Assembly: GCA_031763025.1 (NCBI GenBank)
Contig: JASSKH010000003.1
Span: 4,640,718 to 4,704,717, forward strand
DNA: 64,000 nt
Direction of reading: 5' to 3'
Source: Macrocystis pyrifera
Lineage: Eukaryota; Sar; Phaeophyceae; Laminariales; Laminariaceae
Positions 1 through 60,999 of this stretch are shown here, piece by piece. Below the pieces are notes generated by a model. It was not told the origin of the DNA. It made no database searches and saw only the letters and a list, made by a program, of their open reading frames with translations. The number at the start of each line of letters is the position of its first letter. Position 1 is the first letter of the stretch. The position numbers were made by a program, and so were the translations under genes.

Positions 1-233
1 CACTCTGACGCCGCCGCCGCCGCTTTACGACTGCGCAACAGCTTCGGTACTCGAGCGCTTGGCGAAGCGGTTCGCCCCGAGCCCGAGCGATCTCCAGGAT
101 CTGGCCCCCTTGGTTCTCTCGCCACCCCTGCCCCAGGTGATGCTGCCCAGTGGCTTTCAGTTCGACATTTCTCAGCGGGTCGCGGTGGCCCAGGTGCTAC
201 GGCAGAAAGTTAGCGTTGTCCAAGGACCTCCAG
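1..233 (+). CDS. Exon 1 (partial): helicase N-terminal edge and first half of Walker A
   Basis: Open from the window edge in the frame beginning at base 2. It contains [13 protein letters not shown], the Q-motif-like lead-in of UPF1-type helicases, and ends VSVVQGPPG. The donor g|gtaggt at 233/234 leaves phase 1. Motif I (GPPGTGKS) is therefore split by the 4.3-kb intron 1. No start codon is claimed, because the protein must begin upstream. Confidence 0.88.
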
Positions 234-3200
234 GTAGGTGTTCAACCGCTTGTGCTCGTTTTTTAATAGTATCAAATAGTCTATGTACGGTATCGACTTT
301 GAACTTTGCGCGATACTTATGAATAGTTGAAGGCAGATCGTTGAGCCTAGGATTCTCCCCTCGCGCACACAAACTCTCAAACGCGTGTATTATCTTGTAC
401 GTACCGGTAGTAAGTTTTTTTCGTGGTTGAAGATTCGAAAACAGAAATCGGAGAGAGCGTGTGCGGCGGCATAGTCCAAGTTTTCGCGGTTGTTGTTGTT
501 GTTGTTGTGGTTGCTGCTATTTTTGTGATGATGAAGGGTGTGTGTGATTGCGAAGTGTTTGGAGGAAAACCAAGGTTTTAGGGCCGTGGTATTATCCAAT
601 AATATTTTCTCCTGAAATCTCCTGTTTTTCCCGATTTTTTTTTATAATGTATTCCTGGTTTTGTTCCCCTTTAAGAGAGAGGAATGTATGCTACGTACTG
701 TAAGCGTCCCTGATTTTTTAGCCCTCCCGTCAATTTTTGCTGACTTCAGCAAACTTATTTCTCTTTTTCTTCTTCTTTTTCCTGTTTTTCGTTTCGAGAA
801 ACAGAGGAGAACCAAGAAAAAACATATACTAACAGCCCTTACACGAAAAAAAAAAAGAGACCAAAAAGGCACGACATTTGTCAAAATGGTCAGAATTAGT
901 AACATGCCAGAGTGGAGATGGGGTTTACGGACGAGCTGAAACAATATACCTGGTAGTATTTATTTTTCTTTGATTTTTTTCTACTTCATTCGGGTTTAGG
1001 TAACCCCCCCCTCCCCCCGCTATATTATATACCTGGTTTGACTATGGGTTAAGTTGGCGTCGGTTGGCGACGACGCTGTAAAACACGCCTCTCACTGCGT
1101 GAGCTAGACACCCAGAGTACCGTTTTTTTTTTTTTTTTTTTTTTTTTGCGGTTACCACGGCTGGCGGTCGAGTTAGATCATTTTTGTGCGGGGAGAACAA
1201 ATACTCCGCGCAAGGGGCATGATCGTATCAAATAATGTGTATATGGCGAGGCACTCACGAGGTAGTTGCATAGTCAGCCCATTGTTGTCCCTGGAGGTGG
1301 CCACACCAGAAATTAAATTAATGCATTGATTGTGTCATCCATGCGCCAAAAAATCCGCCTCTAAAGCGGTTCTTAGTAGGATGCAGCTCACCCTTCATGA
1401 GAATCGCCCGATACCTCACGGCGCTTCGCGCTTGGTGCAAGCAATGTCTGCCTGGTCGGTGAAAACCCGACGTGCTCCGTCCCGGCATCGTAGGGGTGCA
1501 AGGGTATATGATCATACGACTACCCCCCTAGCCCTCTCCCCACCCCCGTCGGGATCTGAACAGAAAAACGTGAGGTGTGGCGAGGGCGCCGGGACCAGTC
1601 TTTTTTCGACACATCACACGAAAAAAAAACAGAATAAAAAGACAAACCGCAGTGCTGTGATCACAGGACAATTTACGACATTTTTTGTTTCATTTGTTTT
1701 TTTTTCACGTCTGGATCACTTGGTTTTTAGCGCCCCTCCTCTGCACCTCCCCCCTCCTGTCTACGGAGGCTCTAGAACAAAGTAATCCAAACAGTGGAAA
1801 AAGGAAGAGATACAACATGGTGTTGAATCGCTCTGTGATGATCACAGCGCTCCGGTTTGTTTCATTCTGCCATGTTTTTTTCATGTGAGGTGGTCGAGAT
1901 AAGAACTGTTCCGGGAACCACTGAGCAGTCCCGGCCTTTCGTGGGTATATTGTTTCCTTCTCTGCGTACATATATCTACACTCCCCGGGGCCAACGACTA
2001 AAACAATCTTCGGGTTCTTGAGTTGGCGTCGAAGGCTGAAATTACAAATTTCAAGTACATACGTATATAGCTGTTTTCGAGAAGAACCGGCGGTAAGAGA
2101 TGCCACCCACTCTGTCCTATTTTACAGGGACTGTTCGGACATTCATGCTACAGCAGTAGCGTCTTGGCGAAAAAAAGGGAACAGTCGGGGTTTTCGTTTC
2201 TTGTTTTTTTTTTTGACTGCTGTGTTTGCGATGAGCCAGCGCTCTAGAGCAACTCGAAAACCTCAGGAACGCCATTAAAATAACCTTCGCACAGCAGTCT
2301 CACTAAGCAAGGGTCCTCCGGGCTATTTAGCCTCATGTTTGCGCCCGTGCAAGGTACTTTCGTTGCTATTGCTGTTGTTGTTTTCTGACACTGAATTAGA
2401 ATCTTTCTCGTCGATCCAAACAGAGACTGAACAAAAATGTTCATTAAAAAACTGCATCCGCACCACAGGACAAGTCTTGTGAATGGTCGAGTCAGTCTTC
2501 GGTAAAGCGAGTTTGACTGCAGGTAGTCCAGTGAGTTTTCTGAGCTTGGTCAACACCTATAACTACGGTATTTTATGCTGTTCTGTCAATTGCTATGCTT
2601 AATTCGTTTTCGGGATAATCGCTTTTGTTTTCATTTTCTGAAATTAAAATCGAACGAAAATCGAAGGAAAACCCGGATACTTCATATTTTGTTTTCCCTG
2701 CGTAAGCTACAGTATGTTCTACGTACTTCCTTACAAAACAAATACATAAAACAAAATATAAACATGACTCCCAGGATGTATTCTACGTGGTATCAAGCAG
2801 GACAAGAAATTTCGAACCCTACGGTCCCTGTTCAGCGGGACAAAGTGCCCTATATAACGGTAGAAAGCGGTCTACGGTTCTTCTATAACGGTAAAAAACT
2901 GTGTATAGGGTAAGTTTACGGGTCTCTTGTCAAAAATCAGACCTTCAAGAAATCTGCATGCTTTTTAGCCCAGAAATATTTTGATTACTTTTCACTACGC
3001 ATGCTCGGCCTGTTTAGGCTCTCGTCGTCTACAGGAAATAGTGAGAAGTCTTGTCCCTTTTCGCTCTGACAGAAATATAAGGGCCGTTTGTACTAAATTT
3101 TAGTACACAACTCATCGTCTTATTTTGGGACGGAGTGATACATCAGTCAGAGTATCAGTTGGGACAAGGTCTCCGAGGTGCAAACCTCGGGGGTTTTATC

Positions 3201-6200
3201 ACTGAATGTACTGGACGTAGTACCTGTAACTGTTTTCCAGTATCGATCGCGGCTCAAGGTGGTTTTTAGTTTGTTGCCATACCCCGGGGTTTAAGCGTTG
3301 GGCCTTACTATCACCGCCCACTGCGTGAGAAAGAAAAAAAGCAGTCTGGTTTCAGACCACAGCCCCTAATGCGTTAGCACACCCTTGTTAACGCACCCCC
3401 TTGTTGCCCCCCCCCCCCCCCCCCCCCGCCGCCTTACCGGTACACCCCTCCCCTTTTTATCACACCCCCTGAAGTCTGCTGATATCTGTTCACACTGCAT
3501 AGCAATCAAAGATGCCGCTATATAGCACACCCCCTCCCTGCCATCTGACCGAGCCTGTTGGCACTCGTTAGCAAGCGATGTTTCGATATATCACACCCTC
3601 GCTATCACCCCCCCCCGCAGATACGGGACTCCCGTGCATGGTGCTCATCACCGAGGGGGGGGGGGGGGGTACTTGAGATAGCATCCCCCACACAACAGCA
3701 CACCCGGTGATAACACTTCCAGCCGGGTCTAAAAAATATCACCGGGGGGGTGCTTTCATGCATCTCATATACATTGCCGGTATTCATGGAGAGACTAAAA
3801 ACTACCGCCGTACAAACAAACAAGTGTGGCTGCAGTTACAGCAACACTGCATCCGTGAATCCGCTTACGACGACACTCCCTTTTTGGAGACAAACTACTT
3901 AGGATTAGAGTGGTTTGCCCCCAAAAGGGGACTGCAGTCCTGAAAAAATAAATCAAAGTAACGCCCGCCCCCCATCCCCGATCCCCCCCGCTCTTCTGGG
4001 ACGAATTTTCCGGGCCTACTTTCTCCACATCCTCCAGGGAAACAAAATAGTCGAAAACATGACTGACCAAAATGGTGGCTGTGCACTGATCTCTCGACGA
4101 TATCATTCGGTAGACGCACCGCTCGCTTGGAGCTTCGTTTGTGACCTTCCTCGTGGTTGTCGCGAGAAAATCAGTTTCGAAAGCAAACCGTCTGAACGAG
4201 GGTGCCATTTTAATACGACTCCTACTACGAGGAGAAGGGAGTTTTGATTAGACTTTGTGCATGAAAAATCGTCCCCCCCGCCCCTCCCGTGGTTTTCTTC
4301 TTCCGGAGTGCTTATATAATGAGGGGTCAGCAAACGTTGAAGCTCATACTGCACAACGTCAATGGCAATTTAATGCTATGAATACTTGTTTCTTCTGCTA
4401 CTTCTACAACTGCCGCTGCCGTTTCCCTCTTTGCTGCTTCCGTCACTACGAGTATCACAGCTCGTGTACGGTCCGTGGCAAAACAGACCGAACCAAGACT
4501 GTTCACCTCCCTCCCACCCTCCCTCCCTCTCTCAATGCCCCCTGCTACTTTCTATTTTCCAGGCACAGGAAAGAGCTTCCTCGGCGCGTTGCTCGTTCAA
4601 ATCGTCCTCTCCATGACCAGCGAGAGAGTCCTGGTCGTCTGCTACACCAACCACGCCCTCGACTCCTTCTTAGAAGACATCCTGTCGAAGGGCATCGATA
4701 GTATAGTGCGTATCGGCGGGGGCAGCAAAAGCGCCAAGCTCGAACCGTACCAGCTACGGAACAGGCCAGACTCTAAGTTCACCACCGTGCAGAGCCGGCA
4801 ATACGGCCACCTCAAGAGTGAGTTAGAGACGTCGCAAGGGGGGATCGACGCGGCGCAGCTCCGACTTAACCGCAAACCCACGAACAAGGAGATGTTGGAG
4901 TGGTTGGAGGATGAGGACCCGGCGGCTTTCGAAGAGCTGGAGATGCCAGAGGCGTTGGGGCTGGGCGGCGACACTGTCGTCGGCAGGAAGGTACAGCGGG
5001 TAGCGGCGGGTGTATGTAGTAGAAAGAGAGAGTTGCGGTGGCGTGTGTTCGGTCAAGTTTCGAGTACATGTTTACCGACACTTTTCTAGTTTTGTTTTGT
5101 CAGCTTTTCCCATAATCTGGAATCGATTTTGCCCTCGTGCCATGTACAGTAGTAGGTGGAGAGTTGTGGTGGTGTGCTTGCTCAATCAACTTTCGATACC
5201 AATTTATCGACACGTACGTTGCTTTCTTTGTCAGAAGCTTTCCGGTTATACACCCGGTATTTTTATCGTACACGCATTTACTAAATAATATGTACCGAAA
5301 CCGTCACGAAAAGGACAATGGTGTTGTTCCGTTCCATAAACTGGAATCCCTTTCGCAGCGGTACGTTTACCAGTACTACTGCTGCTCTACCATGTTGGGG
5401 AGGAAACCATTGACTGATTAATTTTGTTGAGTTTTTTCCTTCGTTCGGGAAACGTTTTTGAGTGATAACGGTCAAGCTCATGCAATTAATACTAGCGCTG
5501 GGCATTGGCTCAATAAGTCCGTATCGATTATACTGTCATGGAAATCAATCAGTATACCAAATTGAAGCAGTATACTGTTTCTCCTCGGTACTCTTTGCCC
5601 TCAGATGAAGTGGGTTTACGCACTAATGTATGGCGTGCTTCTTGGGCGTACGTCAGACAAAACTACTGGCGAATATACTGGCCAGGTCAATCAGTATATT
5701 ACTACTGCCAGTACATTCTGTACCAGTGCCCTGTCCTAACTAATACACATTATCGGATGGCGAATGCCCATAAGAAAAAAAGGTGAAAATATTTGCAAGG
5801 CGTTCATTTACTAAATAGTGAAGGGGACGTGGTGCGTTGTGTTTAGAGAGGCGGGGGGAGAGCTTAAGGCTAAACAGTTGCGCGATGTGCTGTGGAGCCG
5901 GCCATGTTATCGGGTAATTCGACTACGTACGATCAAAACCGTGTATTTTTAATTATTTACAGACAGTCTCCTCAATAGTTTGGCATAACCATGACAAGTT
6001 TTCGAATAACAGTAGAAAAGAAGAACACAATTTCGCACAGGTACACACTTTCTGTTATATACCTGGCGCACATTTTTGGATGTACTGTGCCTGCAGCTGA
6101 AGAAGAATGGATGAAAATCTAACCTGTACATGGGCGCCGTTCCTTGGAGTCCATAGCCACTTTCGGGGCCCTCGACGACGAACGGCGACGAGCAATGAAC

Positions 6201-21200: not shown

Positions 21201-24200
21201 AGGGGGTGGAGTTGGTGATGGGGCTGGAGAGGGAGTCGGAGCTGGAGAAGACGTAACTGTAGGTGACTCCAGTGATGGAGCTGAAGCAGGAGCTGGGGGT
21301 GGCGCTGATCGACACACTTTCTACGACGACGACGACGACCCGAAGCTGCGAGCGTGCCTGCTTGCCGTCTCCTTCCTTCGAGCGCCCGCCCACAACCTCA
21401 AGGCTGGGAAGGTCGATTCTTCGGGATGGAAGGAGGCGGCGGAAGCGGTGGTGAGGTCGACGGGCGCGGCGCTATCTCGAGCCCTCTGGGGCCCCGACGC
21501 CGCCGGCAGCAAAAACGACGACTGCGAAGGCGGAGGCGACGGTGGCGGAAAGAGGGCGGGCGACAAGGTGAGACAGCAGTGGCGGGGTCTGCGGTCGAAG
21601 TGGGGCGTTTCTAGCGAGGCGATGGACGACCTTCTGAAGATGTCGGGCCTCGACTCCATCAAGGCCGACTTTCTGAGCGTTGCGAAGCTGGCAGTGATCG
21701 ACAGGGAGCGCGGGTTCGACTTGTCCGCCAGGTCGTTCAACGTCCGCCTCGAGGGCAACCCCGGCACAGGTAAGCTTCGTTAGACTTGTGTGGTCCGCTG
21801 GGTGTTGCCGTACAACACGTGCGATGGGGCAACACACCCTGCCGGACCATTTTTGATAGCGAGCAGGGACACGTCGTTGGAAATATATCGACGATGTTCT
21901 TCCATTACCGCCATGTTTTGGAGCAAGTTCGGCTCTGCAATTGGCCCCAGCTTGGGTGTGCGCGGCAGCCCATATCATATACGTATGTATGTTGTATGGT
22001 ACGATAGAGACAACATGTCACGGCCAAAAGTTGTTTTCCGACGGGAGAGAGCGAGGAACCATGTACGAAGCTATGCCCAACATCGTTCGAGCGCTATAGA
22101 TGTGTTATTGTTCCGCTCTCTATTGCTGTTTCAAATCGTAGCCAGGCCGTGAAATCGTCGGTCGCTTTTCATTTTGAATTGTCCTCACACGTCCTCACGT
22201 GAGGGGGCTCCAAGGCGTTGGGTCCACTCCTACACTAGAATAGACGTCCTACACTTGCGGAGTGGTATGGCACGGTGGCGTCAGTTCTTGGGGGAAAACA
22301 AAAACATCGGTCGGTCCCCGACAACCTTCCATAAGATGCGCTCACCTCCCTCCCTCCCTTTCTGCCTCCCCCCCTACAAGAAATCTAGCCGCGATCGGGC
22401 GGGTACTGGTACTACAGCAAGATATACAGCGTACATAGGTTGGAGGTATAGTACTTTCATTCATCGATTTTAGTCTTGTGCAGTATTATAGCTGCGTTCT
22501 CTTGCTTCGTCGCGGCCCCCCATACAGGCGGTTCGTTCTCACCACTCCCCCTTCGCTCCCCTCTGCCGTTCTGCTACGTATCCCCTCCCACCCACCAACC
22601 CATCCATCTTCCACACGCTTTTGCTATTGTCCCTCCTTGTTTTGCACGCCACGTCACGCTAGGGAAAACGACCATCGCCAGGCTGTACTACCGTCTGCTG
22701 AAGGACATCGGAGTGTTCGCTTCCGCCGAGCGGCGGGCGCAAGACCTTCAAAATGCCGCCGACGCCGAGGCTAGGAAAAAAACTCACGACAAAGAAAAAC
22801 GTAGGGTTGAGAACGAGCGCAAGGCATTCCAGGCCGCCGGCCTTCCCTACAACAACGATCCGCCACCAGCAACGCCGGGCGGGGCTAACACCACTACGAC
22901 CGGCACCCTCGCTGCGAACTCCGGGTCGGCGGTGGGAGCAGGGGCGGCAACCACGAAAGAGGAAGGTTTCGTCGAGACGACCGGTGCCGCCCTGGCCGAC
23001 CGCGGCACAAAGGGCCTTCAGAACATGTTGACAAAGATCAAGAGCGCTGGCGGAGGCGTGTTGTTTGTTGACGAGGTGGGTGGGTGCGTGGTTGGTGGAT
23101 TTTTTGGTGCTTGGGTGGGTCGGTGGTTGGGGGTCTGAGTTGCAGCAGAATCGCACTGTCAAACGTTTAAAAGCGAGGGTGTTGGTTGAATCGGATTCTC
23201 GATCTTGCCTTTAGAAAATCTTAAAAAAGAGTGATGCCGTGCCGTGCAGTAGCAGTAGCCCCGATCGTTCATATTCGGGAGGCAGGACCCGGGGGGCGGG
23301 GGCGGAGAGAAGATGAGATACACCAATGCTTTTGAACCCCGTTCAAACCCACTTGATTTTCCACCACTACGAAGCATTGGCTGACAGTAGCAGTATCCTG
23401 TCTGCTGGTAGTCCGCCAGACATCTTGTAAGCATTTACTTTAGATGCAGCTCTTCACACCACTCCCTCCCCCCCCCCCTACTCAATGCCATCAAAGGCCT
23501 ACACTCTCGAGCCGCAGGGAACCACAGGAGGCCAGGGAGAGCAGGTGCTAAACTTCCTGCTGGCCGAGATCGAGAACCGCCGCGGGGAGTTGGTGGTGGC
23601 CTTCGCCGGATACGCCAAAAACATGGAAACCCTCTTTGAGTTTAACGAGGGACTGCCGAGCCGTTTCCCCCCAAGATCTTCAAATTCGAGGACTACAGCG
23701 ACGAGCTCCTGCTCGAAATTTTCTTGGGGCAAATGGCGGGAAAAGAAGGACTGGGAACCTTGCGGCTGGCACCGGGTGCGGGGAGGGCACCCGTTGGGCA
23801 AAGGTTGCTATCGCTCGCCTTGGGCGGCAACGGGGGATGCGCGGTTTCGGAAACGCCCGGGCTGTTCGCGGGTTGTTCGACAAGGTCATGCAGCGCCAGT
23901 CGGACCGTCTCAGCGCGGGCGACGAGGCCGCGGACGATGCCGATCCGTACGAGCTCGTCAAGTCTGACCTCCTGGGTGTGTCCATCACGAGCCTCGAAGA
24001 CTCGGCCGACTGGAGGACGCTCCGAGACATGATCGGGCTGGGCAGCGTAAAAGAGGCGGTGCGCGCGCAGGCCGAGCTGGTGAAGACCAACCTTGTGCTC
24101 GAGGAGGCGGGCAAGCCTCCCAGGGGAGTCGCGCTGAACCGGTGCATGATCGGGAACCCGGGCACGGGTGAGCGATGCACGTTCATGTTGTTTTTTAGAA

Positions 24201-27200
24201 GTTTGTCGGTAAGAGTAGTTAGAAAATACGCTACGTCGTCAAACAGCAGACCGTCATGCTGTACTGCTGTTAGCTTGTGCCGGGTATCGTACGTCCCGCT
24301 GACGCCAGCACGCGGCTCAGCAGGCTGTCCGTTCCTAAAGCGAAAGTATTACACGTATACATGGATAGCTCTGCAGTACGTACAGTAGCTCCACCCAGCA
24401 AACGCTTCTGTTGTACCCTGAACGGCTCTTTATCCCACGCTCCACCACAGGCAAGACTACGGTGGCCAAGCTCTACGCTGGGATTTTGGCGGACCTTGGC
24501 CTCCTCTCGAAGGGCGAGGTGGTGCTCAAGACCGCATCGGATTTCATTGGGCAGCACATCGGCGAGAGCGAGGTCCAAACTCGTGCCATTCTTAAAGCAT
24601 CGGAGGGCTGCGTTCTTGTCATCGACGAAGCTTACTCCCTGCTGGGTACCTCGCATTCGGCGGACCCCTTCCGAGTGGCCGTCGTGGACACTTTAGTGGA
24701 GCAGATCCAGAACGTCCCCGGCGAGGACCGGTGCGTGTTGCTACTGGGGTATCGCGCCGAGATGGAGGAGTTCATGAGGAAGGCTAACCCCGGACTCGCT
24801 CGCCGCTTTGCGATGGACAACGCCTTCAACTTCGAGGACTACACGGGTGCGTTAACCATACATATTGTGCGATCCGTTTGGCGTTGCGTCATCTGTTGCA
24901 GGCGTCAGGGCTTGCTTCGGTTGCTCTAGTTTTAACGCCTGCTTTGAAAAATATTTTCACCCTTGCTACTCCAGCGGATCCATTGAATCAATGCAGCAGG
25001 AAACACAATACACAGAGAGCGCGCAGCGTTCATAGCACCTGTTGTCGCGCTGAGAATCAAACCCAAAAGGTAGGCCACATGGCCCAAGTAAATAGTCTTG
25101 AGCGTGCATCCACGCGTCGCGCCGCCTCGAGTATGTGTCGTTGATCACTACAGTACATTCACAGCTATCGCGGCAGCCCCCAAACAAATGCCCTGACACG
25201 AAACGATTATTCAACCTTTCCTCTTCTTGTCACCGACCCCTCCTGTGGCTGTGGAATACACTGTAGATGAGGACCTTTTGTCCATCCTTCGCCTGAAGCT
25301 GAAGAGCGAGCAGCTGACGGCAGGGGTGGACTCTCTCATAGCCGCCGCTGCCGTGCTGAGGGAGAGCCGGCTGACGGCTTCGCATTTCGGAAACGGTGGG
25401 GAGGTGGCTAACCTACTGAGCGAGGCCAAGCTCCGGAAGGAAAAACGCCGGGGCGATGGCTCGATAGAATCCAGGCAAGCCGTCGGAAGGCACACCATGG
25501 TTGGTGGTGGACACGTTGCCGTGATAGAGGTGGTAATACTTTGTTGCCTTGCAAGGCAAATATTTGTGCCTGATGGAGGTTACCCAACCGAGTAAATCAC
25601 CCAATGTCGCTGGGAGCACCATTTGTGTTGCACAATATTCTTGAGCTCCTACCGTAAGCTTATGTGGAACAGTGCCGCGGTTTGGGTTTCACTTTTGTTT
25701 TCCTTCTGAGGCAATATTCTCCGACCGGTTGACCTTCTAAAGTGAACAACTGTTAGTGTACCGGCTAAAACGATAACTCGACCGCAGTCGGATGTTCGTT
25801 TTAGGATTACTACTGTAGTAGCGTGTATATGTCGGTAGGGGTTGCGCAAACAAAACCTCTCCGAAGTCATATTTTGGGGGTCCAGACCCACGCACATATT
25901 TGTTCACAAGTCAGTTTGGACTTGCTGCAGGTGTTGGTCCTACTTACTTGAGGAGCCTCAGGAACAAGTACAGTAGGTGCTACGTGATACCCCCGCTTCA
26001 GCAGTGGTTGATACTGCTGTAAGGTTTTCCAAAGGGTGGGGAATACGCGATACCAGTGGCACGGTCTTTCGAGAGGAAAACCCAGATACGAAGAGGTCGT
26101 GGTCTCTGCGTTGAGAGAGGGAGTAGCTGTGGACACGGGTTATCATACGTTGGTTCTATTTTTTTGCCATTTATTTCCTGGGCGTATTGATTGTATATGT
26201 GCGTGCTTGCGTTTTTTTTTCTTGGTTTTCTTTCTGAGGCAGTAGTAGTGCTCTGTCGTGGACGGCGCTCTCTGTGTTACTCCCCCGCTGACTCTGCTGT
26301 AGCGAAGACGATAGAAGAGAGAAGGCGAGCCCTGCCCCACACAAGGTCATTCAAACAACCTGACTCGCCCAATACCAAATATTCGCGAGCAGTGGCAAAA
26401 CCATACTTAAGGTATTATACCGGCATATGCTATGGTTTTACATCTTTGCAGTAGTTGATCACCTCGCCGTGCGCATCGCACTACGTACCGCGCGACAGGC
26501 TCGACCCGGAGATCTTGCCTCGTGACTTCGACCCGGCATACGGCGACGCCCCCCCCGACGGTGCGACGCTCGAGGAGGACTTGTTCGGGGACCTCATCGG
26601 CTGCGACGCTATTAAGATTCAGCTGAGGAGAATCAGGTCCACTTTTGTACACGCCGAGAAGGTTGGCCGCGATCCTCGTCAGGTGGGTGCTCCGTGAAAT
26701 AAGTCTTGTCCACATTGTGTTGGGTTGTTGACACCCGCCCGGCTGTAATGTTTGTTTTAGTCAGAAAAGCACCCTGTACAGCAAAACGTGCAAGCAAGCA
26801 TGCGGGCGCGCAACTATCTCACCGCCCCTCCCACCAAAGATCTAAGATGGCACCCAATGTCTTTCGGAAGGGTCTCTGCCGCTACAGCTTCGCCGCACTT
26901 GGTTTTCGAACAGCTTTGTCGCTACGGCGTTAGAGCCTATCGTGTAGCCCAGACCAGAAACACAACGAACGCAAGACTCCGGAACAGCTAGTCGCGGTTC
27001 CGAACGGTTTCTTACACGGGAAACAACCCGAGGAACCAAGTGGACCACATTCATCGTCAGCCGCTATGTTTCTCGAACACACGAACAGCATTAGTGTTAC
27101 GGTACGTAACCTCAACAATGTCCGCTTCCGCCCAATGCTCCGATTGCTCCCTCCCGCTCACGCTCATCGTCAGCCTCTATGTTTCTCGAACGCACGGACA

Positions 27201-30200
27201 GCATTAGTGTTACGGTACGTCACCTCAACAAATGCCCGCTTCCGCCCAATGCTCCGATTGCTTCCTCCCGCTCACGCTCTCTCAGACGTTGAATCTGAAC
27301 TTTCGGTTCACAGGCGCCCCGGGCACAGGCAAGACCACGATTGCCCAACGCCTCGGTCGCATGTTCAAGCAGCTACGCCTTCTCGGTTCGGACGAGGTGG
27401 TGTCCTGCTCTCCGTCTGACTTTATCACCGGGTGAGTGCTTGAACTCAACCACCAAATTGGGGGGGGGAATACTATTCGAGTGGCACGGCCCTGATGGGG
27501 TCCAGTGCTGCAAGTGGGGCACTGCTGTTGTCGGTTGCTCGAAGCCAAATCTGAGCTCGGAAACACGAGGTTTGCGCCCACCGTTGGTTGAGTCTAAGAC
27601 CATAGTCTAAGACTATCCCCGCGTGCAGTTCCGTTATGTAACCATACGGCCTGCTGCATATACAGTACTACTTGGTGCCTACGACGTGCGCTTCTTCTCT
27701 TTCGTGTCCGATTTAGCAACGGCTAGAACCCACAGACAAACATGACACCACATCGAATGCATCCTCCCATGCGGTGCACACATCATGAACTCGGTTGCGC
27801 TTTTGTTCGTTCTTTGGCGCTGTCGCGAAAACGCACGGCTGGGGTTTGTAGCTACATCGGTCAAGCCGCCATCAAGACAAAGGGGATGATGGACAAGGCT
27901 ATCGGCAAGGTCCTCTTCATCGATGAGGCGTATGGCCTGAACCCCCACCAAACCGGGTCGCACGGGGCGACCTTTATGCAGGAGGTGCGAGGGTGATCGA
28001 CGTTTTGTCGGGCGTAGCTTTAGACCCGTGACATGCACGATATAGAGGTACTGTGGCACGTTTTTTGCCATATCAACTTCGACTCATGGGGCTCCTTAAG
28101 GGCACCGAAGATCCACTTAGTAAGGCCTTCCCCATTGAGGCATAAGCCTTATCATATTTATACCTAGGCCATGGCACTGCACATGTTGACTCATGATCGG
28201 TCAGGACTTGGTAAAGATATAGAACCTCCCCCGTCCAGAAACCTCAGAAAAACCCAGCGTCCCTCTTCCGTAGCGATCGGTATTTGGTCACCGAGCACCC
28301 ATAAAAATCCGCGGCCAGGCCTTCCAGGTCAAACCCGCGCTCTGCACCCCCCCCCCCGCGCCGCCCCCCCCCCCTCGGCTCATCTGCCTGCCTGCAGCCC
28401 TGCGCAGCCAGCTCGCTCGGGTGAATATTGAACTCTCAAAGACAACGACGTTCGTGAGTCGACCTGGTGTATAGAGGCTTTGCTCCACAAGCGTTTCTCC
28501 CGCTCCCCCCCCGTTGCATCCTATATCGTCTGACCTCCATTTCAGGCTGTAGACCAGCTGGTCCAGTGTCTCACGGACGACAAGTACAAGGGGAATATGG
28601 TGGTCGTCGTGGCTGGGTACGCCCATGACATCGACGGCCTCATGCAGTCCAATCCGGGACTTGCCAGCCGCTTCCCGGAGACGTTGCACTTCCCAAGCTT
28701 CGACGTGCAGGACTCCAGCCGCTTGCTCGAGGCCGCACTGAAGAAAGGGTTCAACACGGACTTTACGCCCGACGCTGCGGCCACGCTGCCGGAGTTGCTA
28801 CCACCTCTAGTGCAGGTAAGAGCCAGTCATAGCCAGCCACAGAAGGAGCGATCAGGACAAGTTCCAAATTCCGTTTTCGATGTATGTCAGTTTGTCTCTT
28901 GCTTTCTTCTCTCCATCTTAATCTTCAACTCTATCTCTCTTCCTCTCTCTCTATTTCAATCTTCAACACTATCTCTCTTTATCTCTCTCCCTCTCGCCTC
29001 CGGGGTTGACAAGAAGCGTCTGTCCAGGCACTACTCTGTCTAGACACCAAGTGAAACGTTGTTCTAGACTTTTAACAGCCAGCCCTTGGTCTGGTTTCTT
29101 CGGGCCCTCCAGCAATCTCCTCTTGGACACGAACCGGTACCATGCCGTACCTCATCAGCAAGTTGCCTTAAAACTATCGCACGTCTCTAACTTTACTAAT
29201 CGCTGTGAAGATCGAATGCCATTCTGCAGGCGCAGAATTACTCGATAGGGGGAGGGAACGAACGGTTGAGGAACCGCACTCACCTCGCGATTTGTCTTCA
29301 CCAAAACCCCCGTCGATGCCCACGCGCAGGCCCCTCGCTTCGGCAACGGCCGCACCATCACCGACCTGGCCAAACGGATCTTCACGGAGGTCGGGATGAG
29401 GGTGGGCGACGAGGGCGGTGGTAGCATCGGCGGGCGAACACGTAAACACCGAAGCGACCCAAGGGCTTCAGTCGACGACGTTCGCCGTTCTGCCGACGCC
29501 GTCCTAGCTCAGATGACCGATGGTGGTGCCGGCGACACGCCCACCGCCCAAGGCGCTAACGGCAGCAGCGCTCCCCCGGTTGCTTCGTTCAGCACTAGAA
29601 GCGAGGCACCCAAAACAACGACCACGACGGCATCGACAGCGACGTCGCCTCCGGAGGAGATGGCGTGCGACAATTCCTCCGTGGAAGAAGGAGAGGGGAA
29701 GGAAGACTACAAGGAAGTTTTTCAAGACCTGGACCCGTTTCAAGACCTGGACCCGTTCCTTAACGAGAAGGACGCACAAACCCTGCAAAGAGCGTACGAG
29801 ATAGCGGGCATTCCCGACGATAGCTCCAAGCTCAGCAAACACGTCGAGCAGGCCACCGAGGACCTTCGGCGCGCCCTCCTCCTCCCCCCCTCGTCGAACG
29901 GAGGGGTGGGCCTCTCCGCAGAACAAGCGCGGGCGTTTCTGCAGAGGGTGGGCACCGACAGAGCGGCACTATCGCACCTCAGGAAGGAGGCCCTCGATAC
30001 CGTGGCGAAGCATGATTCTGACGAGGTTGACGCCAAGCGCGCGGCGGAAGAGGCGGGCGCCGAGTTCGACGAGGCGGAGTCCTCCGGAGAGTTCGACGAT
30101 GACAAGCTCGCCCTCCTGCTACTGGCCAAACGAGCCAAGGAGGAGGCGCTGAGGAAGCTCGAAGAGCAGAGGAGGGTAGAACTAGCGAAGGAAGTGGCGG

Positions 30201-30373
30201 CACAGACCGCTATTCAGCGAATGGGAAAGTGTGTAGCAGGCTTTAAGTGGCACCGGGTGGGGAGCGGCTGGAGGTGCGCAGGAGGCACTCACTTTCTGTC
30301 GGGCAATGCTGTCGCTGTTGAGATAGCTCGTGGGAACATATCGTATCTGTGTGAGTCGATGCGTTGGTCCTGA
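1..30373 (+). CDS. Giant fusion protein: UPF1/ZNFX1-like SF1 helicase + NF-X1 zinc finger + three CbxX/CfxQ AAA+ modules (5' partial)
   Basis: Eighteen exons can be joined with matching phases: 1-233, 4563-4990, 6434-6944, 8536-8690, 10448-10699, 11679-11952, 13650-13773, 15659-15931, 19950-21769, 22663-23075, 23497-24167, 24451-24846, 25267-25474, 26499-26682, 27286-27431, 27852-27984, 28546-28815, 29330-30373. They give about 2,510 residues; the N-terminus lies before the window. Residues 1-720 (counted from the window start) form an SF1 helicase with motifs [65 protein letters not shown] and [10 protein letters not shown]. An NF-X1 type zinc finger follows, then a coiled coil, then AAA+ modules with GNPGTGKTT, GNPGTGKTT and GAPGTGKTT Walker A motifs. 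Known family facts: ZNFX1-like helicases act on RNA in silencing or antiviral defence, and CbxX proteins are AAA+ remodellers. A joint RNA-surveillance or defence role is inference. Exon 11 shows two frame changes, so the gene may be damaged or misassembled. Confidence 0.9.
1005..1530 (+). repeat. Dispersed repeat family R, copy a
   Basis: About 520 bp that recurs inverted at 38085-38610. Shared landmarks in order are an outer poly-C tract, ctctcactgcgtgagc, a poly-T tract followed by gcggttaccacggctgg, and gtcggtgaaaacccgac near the other end. Shorter copies lie at 11374-11525 and 40785-40872. No coding or clear terminal repeat was seen, so it is probably a non-autonomous element. Confidence 0.8.
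1600..1895. repeat. Foldback (inverted repeat) in intron 1
   Basis: The left arm around 1610-1690 and the right arm around 1815-1895 are imperfect reverse complements. They share cagaat..aaacaaaccg and gctgtgatca..acag segments. The arms are about 75-80 bp with about 125 bp between. This is MITE-like, with no coding. Confidence 0.6.
4563..4990 (+). CDS. Exon 2: second half of Walker A, motif Ia
   Basis: The acceptor tttccag| is followed by gc aca gga aag, which completes GPPG|TGKS in phase 1. The exon then shows [19 protein letters not shown] (motif Ia) and [10 protein letters not shown]. An acidic segment [15 protein letters not shown] lies near the end. The donor is taken at AAG|gtacag (4990) in phase 0; a second donor about 9 bases further, cgg|gtagcg, is also possible. 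Confidence 0.88.
4991..6433 (+). other. Intron 2
   Basis: Right after the donor lie two diverged copies of a ~130-bp unit (5011-5142 and 5143-5275). The middle (about 5495-5775) is AT-rich with short inverted motifs. The 3' part (about 6280-6430) is a long C/T-rich tract ahead of the exon 3 acceptor. Confidence 0.7.
5011..5275. repeat. Diverged tandem duplication, ~130 bp x 2
   Basis: Both units follow the order gtagtag..agagttg.ggtgg, then a 'tcaa.tttcga' block, 'tttaccgacac' / 'tttatcgacac', and 'ttttgtcag.agctt'. Identity looks roughly 70 percent by eye. Confidence 0.6.
6434..6944 (+). CDS. Exon 3: helicase insert domain and Walker B (VVVEEAAEV)
   Basis: The acceptor cttcacag| starts phase 0 with [20 protein letters not shown] Gln/Arg-rich stretch of about 25 residues follows (absent from the duplicate at 61.0 kb), then a helical segment with [19 protein letters not shown], then [17 protein letters not shown] and the Walker B region [15 protein letters not shown]. 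The donor atg ata g|gtgaga splits the glycine of [10 protein letters not shown] in phase 1. Confidence 0.9.
6945..8535 (+). other. Intron 3
   Basis: It contains the 'ttccaag' minisatellite (7135-7440). Near 8130-8210 there is a short inverted motif, gaccgcagtcccgt and aacgggactgcag. Nothing coding was found. Confidence 0.65.
7135..7440. repeat. Degenerate ~22-bp minisatellite
   Basis: About twelve to fourteen spaced copies of a unit like 'gtactctaattccaagtaat', each with the core ttccaag or ttccacg. The spacing is near 20-25 bp and copies drift toward the 3' end. Confidence 0.7.
8536..8690 (+). CDS. Exon 4: helicase motif III region (GDHKQLRP ... QHRMPPE)
   Basis: The acceptor gtgaacag| is followed by [19 protein letters not shown], then [20 protein letters not shown] and LQHRMPPE. 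These are the conserved segments linking motif III to the second RecA domain in UPF1-like helicases. The length is 155 bases, ending in phase 0 at GAG|gtcagt. The 61.98-kb copy is 154 bases and frameshifted. Confidence 0.92.
9432..9504. mobile_element. Short Stowaway/mariner-like MITE
   Basis: A 73-bp segment with inverted ends ctctgtcc / ggacagag. The left end continues ggaaatatagggacgg, the familiar Tc1/mariner-type MITE terminus. It lies 27 bp before a P-family MITE. Confidence 0.6.
9532..9636. mobile_element. P-family palindromic MITE, copy 1
   Basis: About 105 bp that reads from ttacgggggaccatagtaaa inward to aataggtaaa and out through ataccataggtcctatt to ggacccccgtaa. The whole unit is a near palindrome with no coding. 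At least ten relatives lie in this window. Confidence 0.85.
9965..10012. repeat. (ATCGAT)n microsatellite
   Basis: A run of tatata followed by repeated atatcgat units. It is low complexity. Confidence 0.85.
10448..10699 (+). CDS. Exon 5: helicase domain 2, first part
   Basis: The acceptor ctccaag| begins [18 protein letters not shown], continuing the MPPE|I sequence of the family. [15 protein letters not shown], a short disordered stretch and [24 protein letters not shown] follow. The donor CAG|gtgaga is phase 0. The exon is 84 codons with no internal stop. Confidence 0.9.
10700..11678 (+). other. Intron 5
   Basis: It contains a C-homopolymer near 11048-11060, a shorter copy of repeat family R (11374-11525) and C-rich sequence before the exon 6 acceptor. 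No coding sequence was recognised. Confidence 0.6.
11374..11525 (+). repeat. Dispersed repeat family R, copy d (partial, diverged)
   Basis: It shares 'gcgcttcgcgctt', 'acaagcaatg', 'ggtcggtaaaaatcc' and 'gcattgtagagatgcgag' with the copy at 1.42-1.52 kb in the same orientation. Only the inner end of the family is present. Confidence 0.65.
11679..11952 (+). CDS. Exon 6: helicase motif IV (VLTPYLAQL) and Gly-rich insert
   Basis: The acceptor gagctcag| gives [20 protein letters not shown], the motif IV region. A Gly/Ser-rich low-complexity insert of about 45 residues then leads to PKVRVST. The donor acg g|gtgag leaves phase 1 and splits the TVDNYQGEE motif. In the copy at 63.67 kb the AG of this acceptor is missing at the matching place. 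Confidence 0.87.
11953..13649 (+). other. Intron 6
   Basis: It contains a long gatacc microsatellite (12700-12895) and short 'gtcgaa' motifs near 12290-12345. The last ~180 bp (13470-13649) are conserved in the minus-strand fragment at 42.27-42.44 kb. A box-A-like string lies at 13174-13188. Confidence 0.6.
12700..12895. repeat. (GATACC/CGATAC)n interrupted microsatellite
   Basis: About 195 bp of gatacc, gatacg and gatatc hexamers. It creates spurious open frames rich in Tyr, Arg and Ser on both strands, which I do not treat as genes. Confidence 0.9.
13650..13773 (+). CDS. Exon 7: helicase motifs V and VI ([10 protein letters not shown] ... NVAISRAR)
   Basis: The acceptor tctccaag| is followed by tc gat aac, completing [39 protein letters not shown] follows, carrying the arginine of motif VI. 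The length is 124 bases and the donor cag|gtaagt is phase 2. A 124-base copy of the same exon lies at 42145-42268 on the minus strand. Confidence 0.92.
14474..14651. mobile_element. Stowaway-like MITE carrying a nested P MITE
   Basis: The outer ends ctctgtccacaaatagg and tttatggacagag face each other across 178 bp. Most of the interior is a P-family MITE (14508-14611). With the insert removed the outer element would be about 75 bp, matching the one at 9432-9504. Confidence 0.65.
14508..14611. mobile_element. P-family palindromic MITE, copy 2 (nested)
   Basis: It starts attacgggggaccatagtta and ends ctacggccccccgtga. It is inserted inside the Stowaway-like element. Confidence 0.8.
14684..14790. 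mobile_element. Diverged relative of P MITE
   Basis: It has ends gcgggggaacacaagtgatc and acttgtgctcccccggcg, with the internal aggacc..tattattggtaaa and gggtcctgttt blocks of family P. The terminal 15 bp differ from the other copies, suggesting a subfamily. Confidence 0.65.
14841..15036. mobile_element. P MITE interrupted by another P MITE (copies 3 and 4)
   Basis: An outer copy begins caatacgggggaccacacag and stops at about 14883. A complete inner copy runs 14884-14991 (tattacggggg ... ggaccccggtgata). Outer sequence resumes (aagaatagggaaatattta) and fades by about 15036. Confidence 0.7.
15659..15931 (+). CDS. Exon 8: end of helicase and first half of NF-X1 zinc finger
   Basis: The acceptor cccaag| gives [18 protein letters not shown], the usual strand after motif [28 protein letters not shown] follows, then [18 protein letters not shown], which matches the NF-X1 finger pattern (Cys, then GHPCPRRC). 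The donor cgcag|gtgcaa is phase 2; the next exon supplies RCHPG. Confidence 0.9.
16632..17148. mobile_element. Long-TIR non-autonomous element
   Basis: The left end (cttgccatccg ... gcagcatgaacttcaccgtt ... cctgaaag) and the right end (ctttcagg ... aacggtgaagctcatgctgc ... cggatggcaag) are inverted copies over about 85-100 bp. The interior is AT-rich with no recognisable transposase. The left TIR contains a 25-bp tandem duplication (16661-16710). A related fragment lies at 4334-4372. Confidence 0.75.
17790..18490. repeat. Large inverted duplication (foldback), ~300-bp arms
   Basis: The left arm 17790-18090 and right arm 18160-18490 are imperfect reverse complements around a ~70-bp loop. Shared blocks include ggagctcatatctgccctg, gggagcacaccaaggag and cgccccgaaggaggacac. 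Both arms translate, on opposite strands, to related peptides ([14 protein letters not shown] and [13 protein letters not shown]). This could be two head-to-head fragments of one old element, or a hairpin RNA source. The peptide family was not recognised. Confidence 0.8.
19950..21769 (+). CDS. Exon 9: NF-X1 finger second half, coiled coil, linker, start of AAA+ module 1
   Basis: The acceptor gctccag| continues RR|CHPGDDQ, then [11 protein letters not shown] and LPCRPC complete the Cys/His pattern. About 100 residues of Glu/Arg-rich coiled coil follow ([17 protein letters not shown] onward), then Gly/Ser/Lys-rich linker. A helical region resembling repeat helices ([35 protein letters not shown]) comes next, with a Gly/Asp-rich spacer. 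The exon ends [17 protein letters not shown] and [10 protein letters not shown], the N-lobe of a CbxX-type module. The phase-1 donor lies inside the last glycine of the Walker A motif. Confidence 0.9.
21770..22662 (+). other. Intron 9
   Basis: It lies inside the Walker A motif of AAA+ module 1 (GNPGTG|K). No repeats of note were seen. A C/T-rich stretch (22540-22620) precedes the acceptor gctag. Confidence 0.75.
22663..23075 (+). CDS. Exon 10: AAA+ module 1, Walker A lysine to Walker B
   Basis: The acceptor gctag| gives [19 protein letters not shown]. An unusually long charged and Thr/Ala/Gly-rich insert of about 85 residues sits between the Walker A and B motifs, then [22 protein letters not shown], the Walker B. 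The donor GAG|gtgggt is phase 0. Modules 2 and 3 lack the insert. Confidence 0.88.
23076..23496 (+). other. Intron 10
   Basis: It splits FVDE|AYTL of module 1 in phase 0. It is G-rich near the donor, with a g/c-rich patch at 23289-23306 and a C run ahead of the acceptor. Nothing else was recognised. Confidence 0.7.
23497..24167 (+). CDS. Exon 11: AAA+ module 1 C-half and module 2 N-half; two apparent frame changes
   Basis: It begins [19 protein letters not shown], then [16 protein letters not shown] and GLPSRF (arginine-finger region). Homology then moves to another frame after a run of six C near 23666-23672 ([19 protein letters not shown]) and moves again before about 23800, where [20 protein letters not shown] and [11 protein letters not shown] resume. 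Each step is what one missing base would give. The rest reads cleanly to module 2: [19 protein letters not shown] and MIGNPGTG, with a phase-1 donor. Sequencing or assembly error, true frameshift, or an unseen tiny intron are all possible. Confidence 0.75.
24451..24846 (+). CDS. Exon 12: AAA+ module 2 core
   Basis: The acceptor ccaccacag| gives [36 protein letters not shown] follows, then [14 protein letters not shown] (Walker B), [16 protein letters not shown] (sensor 1 area) and NPGLARRF (arginine finger). It ends FNFEDYT with donor acg g|gtgcgt in phase 1. All motifs for ATP hydrolysis appear intact. Confidence 0.92.
24847..25266 (+). other. Intron 12
   Basis: A phase-1 intron between FEDYT and DEDLL. 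No repeat or coding signal was seen. Confidence 0.75.
25267..25474 (+). CDS. Exon 13: AAA+ module 2 lid domain, probable GC donor
   Basis: The acceptor actgtag| completes [19 protein letters not shown] and runs to [16 protein letters not shown], the C-terminal lid signature of CbxX proteins. The only donor whose phase (2) fits the next exon is tccag|gcaagc at 25474/25475, a GC-AG intron with the usual GCAAG context. A GT donor further on would give the wrong phase. Confidence 0.75.
25475..26498 (+). other. Intron 13 (probable GC-AG)
   Basis: The donor is ag|gcaag and the acceptor cgacag|g; phase 2 on both sides. The interior has no recognised feature beyond short T-rich tracts near 26160-26230. 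Confidence 0.6.
26499..26682 (+). CDS. Exon 14: N-terminal part of AAA+ module 3
   Basis: From acceptor cgcgacag| it reads [17 protein letters not shown], then [18 protein letters not shown] and [11 protein letters not shown]. This is the lead-in helix region of the third module. The donor cag|gtgggt is phase 0. The start rests on phase agreement with exon 13 and on loss of the open frame further upstream. Confidence 0.78.
26683..27285 (+). other. Intron 14
   Basis: Its last 235 bp are two tandem copies of a ~113-bp unit, described separately. Nothing else was recognised. Confidence 0.7.
27051..27280 (+). repeat. 113-bp tandem duplication at the 3' end of intron 14
   Basis: Unit 1 is 27051-27163 and unit 2 is 27164-27280. 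Both begin tcatcgtcagcc and share ctatgtttctcgaac, agcattagtgttacggtacg and cccaatgctccgattgct. They are over 90 percent alike, so the duplication is recent. It doubles the branch-point/pyrimidine region before exon 15. Confidence 0.9.
27286..27431 (+). CDS. Exon 15: AAA+ module 3 Walker A
   Basis: The acceptor ctctcag| gives [18 protein letters not shown], then [20 protein letters not shown] and SPSDFITG. Unlike modules 1 and 2, the Walker A motif is not interrupted. The donor acc gg|gtgagt is phase 2. The intron just upstream carries a 113-bp tandem duplication that includes this acceptor's upstream sequence. Confidence 0.92.
27432..27851 (+). other. Intron 15
   Basis: A phase-2 intron between FITG and YIGQ. 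No repeat was recognised. Confidence 0.75.
27852..27984 (+). CDS. Exon 16: AAA+ module 3 Walker B
   Basis: The acceptor tttgtag| completes [19 protein letters not shown], followed by [15 protein letters not shown] (Walker B) and GATFMQE. The donor GAG|gtgcga is phase 0. The next exon continues AVDQL, as in related modules. Confidence 0.92.
27985..28545 (+). other. Intron 16
   Basis: A phase-0 intron with C-homopolymers around 28350-28372. No coding or repeats were recognised. Confidence 0.7.
28546..28815 (+). CDS. Exon 17: AAA+ module 3 sensor and arginine-finger region
   Basis: The acceptor catttcag| begins [18 protein letters not shown], then [33 protein letters not shown] and [13 protein letters not shown]. 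It has exactly 90 codons, phase 0 at both ends, with a strong donor CAG|gtaaga. Confidence 0.93.
28816..29329 (+). other. Intron 17
   Basis: It contains a (ct)n-rich tract with a small internal duplication, atcttcaac..tatctctctt, at 28918-28995. Nothing else was recognised. Confidence 0.7.
29330..30373 (+). CDS. Exon 18 (last): module 3 lid, disordered linker, coiled coil, Cys/Trp/Gly C-terminus
   Basis: The acceptor gcgcag| gives [20 protein letters not shown] (lid of module 3). A Thr/Ser/Ala-rich linker follows with a small internal duplication (QDLDPF twice). A Glu/Ala/Lys-rich coiled coil spans about 29990-30200, then [20 protein letters not shown], a short motif often found at the C-terminus of CbxX-like proteins. 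The frame stays open to TGA at 30371-30373. Confidence 0.9.
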   Translation, partial: APRFGNGRTITDLAKRIFTEVGMRVGDEGGGSIGGRTRKHRSDPRASVDDVRRSADAVLAQMTDGGAGDTPTAQGANGSSAPPVASFSTRSEAPKTTTTTASTATSPPEEMACDNSSVEEGEGKEDYKEVFQDLDPFQDLDPFLNEKDAQTLQRAYEIAGIPDDSSKLSKHVEQATEDLRRALLLPPSSNGGVGLSAEQARAFLQRVGTDRAALSHLRKEALDTVAKHDSDEVDAKRAAEEAGAEFDEAESSGEFDDDKLALLLLAKRAKEEALRKLEEQRRVELAKEVAAQTAIQRMGKCVAGFKWHRVGSGWRCAGGTHFLSGNAVAVEIARGNISYLCESMRWS

Positions 30374-40872: not shown

Positions 40873-42144
40873 GGGGGAGGGGGGGGGATTACTGCAGGCG
40901 ACTACCTGCGGTACCTTTTTTAGTATTGAGGAGTGGGGCGTCGGCGGTGCCTTATTTTCCGAGCTCATTAGCGCAACCCGACCAATAGCCCTGGGCAAAA
41001 CAAAACCACTGACAACATTATCACACCACTAACAGCATTATCATACCACTAACAGCATCTCGTACCGCTGGGTTGTTTCTTCGCGCGAGGAGCTCCACCA
41101 TCGTAACCACTCGGTAGTTTCTTTGTTTGAGGAGCTCAACCATCGTAACGAAAAAGTGCAAAAGCTCGGCGCCGCTCGTCTCGTACGTACATCAGACGAT
41201 AAGCAGCGGCCGACGTCAAAAACGACAGAACAAAACAAAAACGTTCGTTAACGTTCACGAGCAATTAGTTCGGCGTATGCTCCCCACCCAGATTCAGGCG
41301 GAGATCAAGCGAATACTCGGCATGCCCATGATAAAACGCGGGTTTCTTATGAGGCAGGGTGCGTGATGGTTGTTGAGCGTGGGAAAACGATTTATTACAG
41401 GGGCTCAGGTTTAGAACTTACGGGAAGTCCGATTGGCATTCGGGGAATATCTCGTGACAGGGTATTCACTGCGGGTTTCCTCGCCCAACGAGGCGGGAAA
41501 CTCGCGGCCGGATACAAGAATAAAGCTCACCAGTTGCGCGGGCGTATCCACAAGCACCCATCATTGGCGGGCTCCATGCCAGTCTTCTCGAGTCGTGCCA
41601 ACGTCAAAGCTGCGCTCCGAATGTCTAGTGTACACTTTTAACGTGTTCTGCGGGTTGGGTTTATTGTAGAAATTGACCCAGGCGACTTTGCCCTTGCCAA
41701 AACCGCTGCTCGATTTACAGCAGGGGGATTTCTGGCGTGGGTCCGACAATAAACATTCCCATTGATAGGTTACGCACAGCGGCTCCACGCAAATGTTGTC
41801 AACTGAAAATGAAACCAGCGTCAAAGTCTCGCTCCAAACATCCGCCATACGCTTTTAACGTGTAAATTGCGTGTGTTGAAACCAAGTTTTGTTTTGGCCG
41901 TTTACGCTTGCCAATCGTAGAAGCTACACTGCGTTTATATCTACCGTGTGATTCCAGCGCCCACTGGTGATGCGGGCATACCTTATAGCCAGAAATACCC
42001 CCACTGTCGCGGGGCACGTGACCTGTCCCACGGATCCGACAGGAGCGAGGAACCTATGGACAGGTCTAGTCCCGCTTGCCAACCGAGCCGTCTTCTTGTT
42101 CGACGATAAATTGACAACGTGTTAGCTTCAGTCCAAGAACACAC
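40873..42144. other. Intergenic, unidentified
   Basis: Open runs at 41127-41366 and 41363-41641 overlap slightly but match nothing I know. Blocks at 41595-41660 and 41815-41870 look like diverged copies of each other (cgtcaaag.c..cgctcc.a, cttttaacgtgt). Confidence 0.3.
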
Positions 42145-42268
42145 CTGGCGCGGGAAATGGCGACGTTGAGTCTGTTGACATCTCCGACGAAACCGATCTG
42201 CCCGACGTCGTTGCTGCGAACGAAGCACCGGACGACGAGATCGCTCTCCTCGCCCTGCGCGTTGTCCA
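42145..42268 (-). pseudogene. Isolated copy of helicase exon 7 (motifs V and VI) with intron flank
   Basis: The minus strand reads [20 protein letters not shown] and [16 protein letters not shown], 124 bases, the same length and frame as exon 7 of the main gene. Its upstream flank (42269 to about 42440) matches the end of intron 6, including ctctctctttctc.accgtgatcgt and aaaatgtctccaag. That shows a DNA-level duplication rather than a copied mRNA. The bases after CGCGCCAG differ (gtgtgt). No other exons were found nearby, so it is a fragment, although the exon itself is uninterrupted. Confidence 0.85.
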
Positions 42269-42440
42269 CTTGGAGACATTTTTAATATCGACCTGAGGGG
42301 GGGCGAACGATCACGGTGGAGAAAGAGAGAGCAGGCAGGCGGTACGGGTAGCAAGGGCGTCTTGTGGCACATTAAAGTGAAGAGGTGAACAGCCAGAAAT
42401 AAAACAGTCGGGAGAATGTTGTATGCTCCAGGACCACAAA

Positions 42441-60942: not shown

Positions 60943-60999
60943 CATCTTCCCATTACGCATGTAGAAACCCTTGGACGCCAAAATCTGCTGCCTTCGCAG

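What the first reader, a model, noticed from the sequence alone, without database searches (positions are those of the whole stretch)
1..30373. One gene joins a ZNFX1/UPF1-type helicase, an NF-X1 finger and three CbxX AAA+ modules
The motifs of both enzyme classes are seen in a single phase-consistent exon chain of about 2,500 residues. ZNFX1-like helicases are tied to RNA silencing and antiviral defence, and CbxX/SpoVK proteins are AAA+ remodellers. I recall large fungal proteins with a similar layout but no settled function. A stramenopile version suggests an old or horizontally shared machine that couples RNA-helicase and ring-ATPase activity. The functional link is inference.
Basis: partly seen in the sequence, partly recalled or inferred. 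Interest (0 to 1): 0.75.

Follow-up and report, generated by a model that had tools for sequence, protein, structure and literature searches.

The report
Kelp RNA helicase fused to AAA+ motors
A kelp gene appears to encode one very large protein that joins an RNA helicase of the ZNFX1 immune type to three ring-type protein-remodelling motors, a combination whose function has not been tested.

Summary
The gene starts 1.8 kb before the window (ATG -1819) and ends at 30373: 18 exons, about 3,118 codons, 17 introns (16 GT-AG, 1 GC-AG), phases matching. The helicase is ZNFX1-type (human ZNFX1 E 1.6e-86). An NF-X1-like finger is split over exons 8 and 9; exon 9 then runs without a stop into the first CbxX Walker A, so both halves share an exon. 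Three CbxX AAA+ modules follow, each with Walker A and B.

Correction: as assembled, the window copy is frame-broken inside exons 1 and 11. An inverted copy (66.1-97.5 kb, about 98% identical) is open through exon 11 but broken elsewhere. Assembly error and early decay cannot be told apart.

New: the genome also holds a canonical ZNFX1 with NF-X1-pattern fingers and the only RZ finger found, with no CbxX detected. The fused gene lacks the RZ finger. None of 158 prokaryotic/viral CbxX loci had the fusion. The similar fungal layout is recalled, not tested. The function, RNA-guided protein remodelling in RNA surveillance or defence, is inference.

The parts
1..233 (+). Exon 1, 3' part (the exon begins at ATG -1819, outside the window): N-terminal region and the start of helicase motif I
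   Evidence: frame breaks at about -1773 and -1274 relative to the inverted copy
4563..4990 (+). Exon 2: rest of helicase motif I and motif Ia region
6434..6944 (+). Exon 3: helicase motif II (EEAAE)
8536..8690 (+). Exon 4: helicase motif III (GDHKQLRP)
10448..10699 (+). Exon 5: helicase
11679..11952 (+). Exon 6: helicase
13650..13773 (+). Exon 7: helicase motifs V and VI
15659..15931 (+). Exon 8: end of helicase and first half of the NF-X1-like finger
19950..21769 (+). Exon 9: second half of the finger, charged stretch, linker, start of CbxX module AAA1 (first part of Walker A)
22663..23075 (+). Exon 10: AAA1 Walker A to Walker B, with a long low-complexity insert
23497..24167 (+). Exon 11: rest of AAA1 and start of AAA2; frame broken here in the window copy, open in the inverted copy
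24451..24846 (+). Exon 12: AAA2 core
25267..25474 (+). Exon 13: AAA2 lid
26499..26682 (+). Exon 14: start of AAA3
27286..27431 (+). Exon 15: AAA3 Walker A
27852..27984 (+). Exon 16: AAA3 Walker B
28546..28815 (+). Exon 17: AAA3 continued
29330..30373 (+). Exon 18: end of AAA3, charged region, Cys/His tail, stop
60970..63916 (+). Fragment C: relics of helicase exons 3-6 of an older copy
42143..42342 (-). Relic of helicase exon 7 of an older copy

Best explanation
A single nuclear gene of a kelp encodes a giant two-motor protein. From N to C terminus it has an N-terminal region, a ZNFX1-type superfamily-1 helicase, one NF-X1-like zinc finger, a charged linker, three CbxX-type AAA+ modules and a Cys/His tail. 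Shown: gene structure, homologies and ATPase motifs of all four motors. Inferred: helicase and finger bind double-stranded or aberrant RNA, as is proposed for ZNFX1. The three linked AAA+ modules, perhaps a hexamer from two chains, pull on or remodel a protein partner recruited to that RNA, as CbbX remodels Rubisco. The protein would couple RNA recognition to remodelling of an RNP in RNA surveillance, silencing or antiviral defence. It would be the CbxX-bearing counterpart of the canonical ZNFX1 that the same genome encodes elsewhere with an RZ finger. Confidence about 0.9 for the single fused gene and 0.35-0.4 for the function.
For: 17 introns with consensus ends and matching phases, the same six bases at each end in the inverted copy. 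Human ZNFX1 aligns across exons 3-6 and across exons 6-9, including the 8/9 join; the finger alone E 1.8e-4. CbxX-class models align across exons 11-13 and 14-18. Exon 9 carries the second half of the finger and the AAA1 Walker A start in one frame. Walker A, Walker B and the RF pair after it are invariant in the three modules. Helicase exons 4-7 against relics C: dN/dS 0.26 over 193 codons, p 9e-8. The helicase matches the anti-phage MkoA model at 4.3e-68. The human ZNFX1 literature points to RNA sensing and immunity (PMC11959080, passages).
Against: No transcript data. The window copy is frame-broken in exons 1 and 11. pN/pS between the two copies is 0.92, no different from neutral (p 0.75). 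No selection test was possible for the AAA part. Pfam zf-NF-X1 does not match. The CbxX modules match no PADLOC defence family strongly. The MkoA match may only reflect the shared SF1 core. The linker model is unusable (mean pLDDT 40.5). Exon ends were chosen by me to fit frame and homology.
Confidence: 0.4

Rival explanations
1. Two neighbouring genes, a ZNFX1-like helicase and a three-module CbxX protein with an internal start in or near intron 8, read as one.
For: The open frame of exon 9 extends 443 nt above its acceptor in both copies, with ATGs, and is not significantly more diverged there. Intron 8 is 4,018 nt. Helicase-only ZNFX1 (C213) and CbxX-only proteins (bacteria) exist.
Against: The finger that human ZNFX1 has in one piece is split over exons 8/9 with matching phase, so each half-gene would carry part of a finger.
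Confidence: 0.07
2. The locus is a recently duplicated, decaying gene pair: the fused protein existed but neither copy makes it now.
For: 9 frame-breaking indels in exons between A and B, each copy broken somewhere; pN/pS 0.92. Relics C and exon 7 show decay of an older copy.
Against: 8 of the 9 indels lie in homopolymer runs, and the matching assembly is PacBio, Canu and Racon (PMC10498591, section), prone to such errors by general knowledge. No substitution stop in the codons compared (to 30336). Coding divergence (53 of 9,270 sites) is lower than intron divergence (284 of 20,439, two poorly aligned blocks left out).
Confidence: 0.3
3. The inverted duplication is an assembly artefact and there is one gene copy.
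For: About 98% identical inverted arms of 32 kb are a known hazard for assembly (general knowledge).
Against: No N in the window or the adjoining fetched stretch between the arms; intron lengths differ, e.g. intron 1 is 4,329 against 3,360 nt; flanks differ. The matching assembly is from a haploid gametophyte, so the arms are not two alleles (PMC10498591, abstract and passages).
Confidence: 0.12
4. A house-keeping RNP-recycling or mRNA-decay machine with no role in defence or silencing.
For: UPF1-type helicases serve mRNA decay (general knowledge); UPF1 matches at 3e-33.
Against: ZNFX1 fits far better than UPF1.
Confidence: 0.3

Closest known systems
Human ZNFX1 (PDB 9q9z)
   Same: Helicase core and one NF-X1 finger align (E 1.6e-86)
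   Different: Human ZNFX1 has six NF-X1 fingers and a C-terminal RZ finger (PMC11959080, passages); here one finger, no RZ match, and three CbxX modules
Canonical ZNFX1-type gene of the same genome (C213:3258027-3317600, -)
   Same: ZNFX1-type helicase exons
   Different: Several NF-X1-pattern fingers, an RZ finger, and no CbxX in the 70 kb fetched
CbxX-class AAA+ ATPases: CbbX, SpoVK, EccA
   Same: All three modules match; the solved-structure matches at 1e-6 were EccA1 and two CbbX sequences
   Different: Scores of 102-141 bits against equivalog cut-offs of 423-467; here fused to a helicase and three in one chain. Two or more modules in one frame also occur in bacteria
Mokosh helicase MkoA (PADLOC)
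   Same: Helicase core matches over 628 residues, 4.3e-68
   Different: AAA2 gave no PADLOC match and AAA3 only weak non-Mokosh ones; the partner gene of the system was not sought
Large fungal helicase-CbxX proteins (recalled)
   Same: Recalled layout: helicase, finger, three CbxX modules and a similar Cys/His tail; from no call
   Different: Could not be compared; no eukaryotic proteome was at hand

Membership tests
ZNFX1-type helicases (core family) | SF1 helicase core (AAA_11 and AAA_12) | tested here: met
   4.7e-26 and 9.5e-37, over cut-offs
ZNFX1-type helicases (core family) | Closer to ZNFX1 than to UPF1, SMUBP2, SEN1, aquarius | tested here: met
   6.8e-73 against 3e-33 for UPF1 and weaker for the others
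ZNFX1-type helicases (core family) | NF-X1-type finger after the helicase | tested here: inconclusive
   Aligns to the human ZNFX1 finger; the Pfam zf-NF-X1 model does not match it, nor the C213 fingers
Canonical ZNFX1 (animal layout) | C-terminal RZ finger | tested here: not met
   No match in exon 18; the only genome match is on C213
Canonical ZNFX1 (animal layout) | N-terminal ARM-type region | tested here: inconclusive
   No Pfam match; one weak stretch aligns to human ZNFX1 (9.7 bits)
CbxX-class AAA+ ATPases | Walker A and B in each module | tested here: met
   Invariant across the three modules; AAA1 aligned without its insert and with exon 11 of the inverted copy
CbxX-class AAA+ ATPases | AAA_lid_6 lid | tested here: inconclusive
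   Two stretches for three modules
SpoVK / CbbX / EccA orthologues | NCBIfam equivalog cut-offs | tested here: not met
   102-141 bits against 423-467
Mokosh (MkoA) | Profile match plus partner gene | tested here: inconclusive
   Profile matched; partner gene not sought
Fungal helicase-CbxX giant proteins | Orthology along the whole chain | not testable with these tools
   No eukaryotic proteome available; layout recalled

The most novel reading that the evidence does not exclude
Brown algae keep two ZNFX1 branches with exchanged C-terminal effectors: one with the RZ finger, proposed as a ubiquitin-transfer element, and one where a covalently linked triple CbxX module takes that place. The second is a dual-motor machine that reads aberrant or viral RNA with the helicase and dismantles or re-models the bound protein with the AAA+ ring. 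It would be shared with fungi and would be an uncharacterised arm of eukaryotic RNA immunity.
Probability: 0.2. Interest if true: 0.8.

Novelty: new variant of a known kind. Interest (0 to 1): 0.52.

Why it matters
ZNFX1 is an immune helicase for which several functions have been proposed (PMC11959080, abstract start and passages). A natural fusion of its core to protein-remodelling motors suggests what kind of act may follow RNA recognition, and RZ and CbxX branches side by side in one genome allow a clean comparison. If the recalled fungal layout is orthologous, the fusion is old and can be tested in genetically easy fungi. Ten literature searches listed no paper on such a fusion. Only asked for CbxX or CbbX; I saw listings (titles and abstract starts), several of them cut to the top 6-25 rows, and the library holds open-licence papers only.

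Tried and rejected
Generic UPF1 helicase: rejected, ZNFX1 fits far better. Canonical ZNFX1: rejected for lack of an RZ finger. One locus (L164) had a weak helicase match in another frame; L010 was not in that scan. Tree of CbxX modules (64 rows, a selection): kelp modules on very long branches, placing unresolved. Viral-collection scans with the helicase or AAA3 alone: no relative; an AAA1-AAA2 query: one short match, L010, not followed. Linker structure: unusable. Solved-structure search of the tail: best E 1.4, chance. Rfam (gathering scores) and tRNA scans of the window: none. Conservation test for a start inside intron 8: not decisive. Exophiala and Magnaporthe papers naming SpoVK or ZNFX1 give annotation labels only (passages). 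PHROGs: three weak families, no name of use.

Full report
WHERE. The window is C211:4640718-4704717 of a genome of 537,376,219 bases in 223 contigs. The published giant kelp (Macrocystis pyrifera) assembly is 537 Mb in 223 contigs, from a haploid female gametophyte, by PacBio, Canu and Racon (PMC10498591: abstract, passages and the assembly section seen). I take the two to be the same; that is inference. A gene with the EsV-1-7 motif (2.5e-22), which I recall as typical of brown algae, lies at 35798-36799 (-).

GENE MODEL. Stop-to-stop frames and splice sites give 18 exons from ATG -1819 to the stop at 30373, 9,355 exon bases. An in-frame stop lies just above that ATG, though a further 5' exon is not excluded. 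Of 17 introns, 16 are GT-AG and one (intron 13) GC-AG, and all phases fit. I chose boundaries to fit frame and homology, so consensus ends alone prove little. Independent support is that homology alignments run across joins: human ZNFX1 across exons 3-6 in one stretch and 6-9 in another, and CbxX models across exons 11-13 and 14-18. The six bases at each end of all 17 introns are the same in the inverted copy, but that copy is young.

THE FUSION. Exon 8 ends in the first half of a finger and exon 9 begins with the second half. Human ZNFX1's finger aligns over the join. Exon 9 then continues to its end, 606 codons without a stop, through a charged stretch and a linker to the first part of the AAA1 Walker A motif. 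The chain from exon 1 (after its frame breaks) to exon 10 is 1,918 codons without a stop. So the finger of the helicase part and the start of the AAA part share an exon.

DOMAINS. Pfam gives AAA_11 4.7e-26, AAA_12 9.5e-37, AAA 7.5e-41 in three stretches and AAA_lid_6 2.1e-18 in two. Of solved structures ZNFX1 leads (6.8e-73) before UPF1 (3e-33). For the AAA part only EccA1 and two CbbX sequences match at 1e-6. The three modules match SpoVK, EccA and CbbX models at 102-141 bits, far below their equivalog cut-offs of 423-467: same class, not orthologues. Walker A, Walker B and a later RF pair are invariant in all three; that the R is the Arg finger is established knowledge of AAA+ proteins, not a test. 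AAA1 has a long insert between Walker A and B. The Pfam NF-X1 model matches neither this finger nor any finger of the C213 gene, so it is insensitive here. The N-terminal region and the exon 18 tail have no Pfam match, and the tail has only chance matches among solved structures. The single-sequence model of the linker is unusable (mean pLDDT 40.5).

COPIES. An inverted copy B lies at window coordinates 66087-97520 (outside the window), 97.0-98.6% identical in its three long blocks. It reaches from 84 bases before the ATG to about the stop, so the duplicated block is almost exactly the gene, introns included. B's own stop comes 9 codons earlier than A's. Fragment C (60970-63916, +) keeps pieces of exons 3-6, and a relic of exon 7 lies at 42143-42342 (-). 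A close AAA1-AAA2 query found only A and B in the genome (5 rows), and AAA_lid_6 likewise (2 rows); only scored candidates count in such searches.

FRAME AND SELECTION. A and B differ by 9 frame-breaking indels of 1-2 bases in exons, 8 of them in homopolymer runs. A is broken in exons 1 and 11. B is open in exon 11 but broken in exons 1 and 9 and shifted over a short stretch of exon 12. In the codons compared (to 30336) no stop appears in either copy. pN/pS between A and B is 0.92 (39 and 14 changes, p 0.75). Coding divergence (53 in 9,270 sites, 0.57%) is below intron divergence (284 in 20,439, 1.39%, two poorly aligned blocks left out). Outside exons there are 52 indels of 1-2 bases in about 20.7 kb, with the same blocks left out. 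The A-B data alone therefore do not show selection on the protein. Against the older relics (C and exon 7), dN/dS is 0.26 over 193 helicase codons in ungapped stretches of exons 4-7 (p 9e-8), so the helicase evolved as a protein for a long time. No such test was possible for the AAA part.

A SECOND ZNFX1. A helicase query also hit C213. The 70 kb fetched around it shows ZNFX1-type helicase exons and NF-X1-pattern fingers. Four pattern matches were found, one of them in a frame that soon stops, and one more finger was seen by eye. It also shows an RZ finger, the only one found in the genome (23 candidates scored). A search with the fused protein found no CbxX there. Human ZNFX1 has an ARM region, helicase, six NF-X1 fingers, coiled coil and RZ finger (PMC11959080, passages). 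The RZ finger of RNF213 holds a Cys/His pair for ubiquitin transfer that human ZNFX1 shares (PMC12075652, passages). The kelp therefore has a canonical ZNFX1 and a second branch with no RZ match and three CbxX modules.

OUTSIDE. Of 158 CbxX loci from the viral and prokaryote collections (3,922 open frames of at least 150 codons), none has the helicase in the same frame, one has a weak helicase match in another frame, and 32 open frames carry two or more CbxX modules. Tandem CbxX is thus not rare among these loci; the helicase fusion was not seen. A tree of 64 modules does not resolve the origin of the kelp modules. The helicase matches the anti-phage MkoA model at 4.3e-68, which may only reflect the shared SF1 core.

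MECHANISM. Shown: gene, domains, motifs. Inferred: helicase and finger grip RNA, and three AAA+ modules in line, from two chains, could make a hexamer that pulls a partner protein, by analogy with CbbX (general knowledge). Alternatives are general RNP quality control, two neighbouring genes, or a decaying locus. I put the single-gene claim at about 0.9 and the surveillance or defence role at 0.35-0.4.

Noticed in passing
-1903..30364 against 66087-97520 (window coordinates; the second lies beyond the window end): An inverted duplication of about 32 kb whose edges nearly coincide with the start and stop of the gene; why the block is gene-sized is unexplained.
   Followed up: partly
C213:3258027-3317600 (-), loci L011-L016 and L175: A second, canonical ZNFX1-type gene with NF-X1-pattern fingers and the only RZ finger found in the genome.
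   Followed up: partly
35798-36799 (-): Open frame with two EsV-1-7 cysteine-rich motif stretches, 2.5e-22.
   Followed up: partly
56174-60327 (+): Open frames that look by eye like a retroelement with a tyrosine-recombinase-like end (DIRS-like); Pfam found nothing in the four frames tested.
   Followed up: partly
9531-9641, 14505-14627, 14884-15001, 30965-31079, 33720-33962, 35161-35431, 47318-47437, 52878-53008: A dispersed repeat of about 105-120 bases in both orientations, some in the introns of the gene.
   Followed up: no
25475-26498: A GC-AG intron (donor GCAAGC) whose ends are the same in both copies.
   Followed up: no
1004-1521 and 38104-38617: An inverted repeat pair of about 520 bases, 84% identical, one arm in intron 1.
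   Followed up: no
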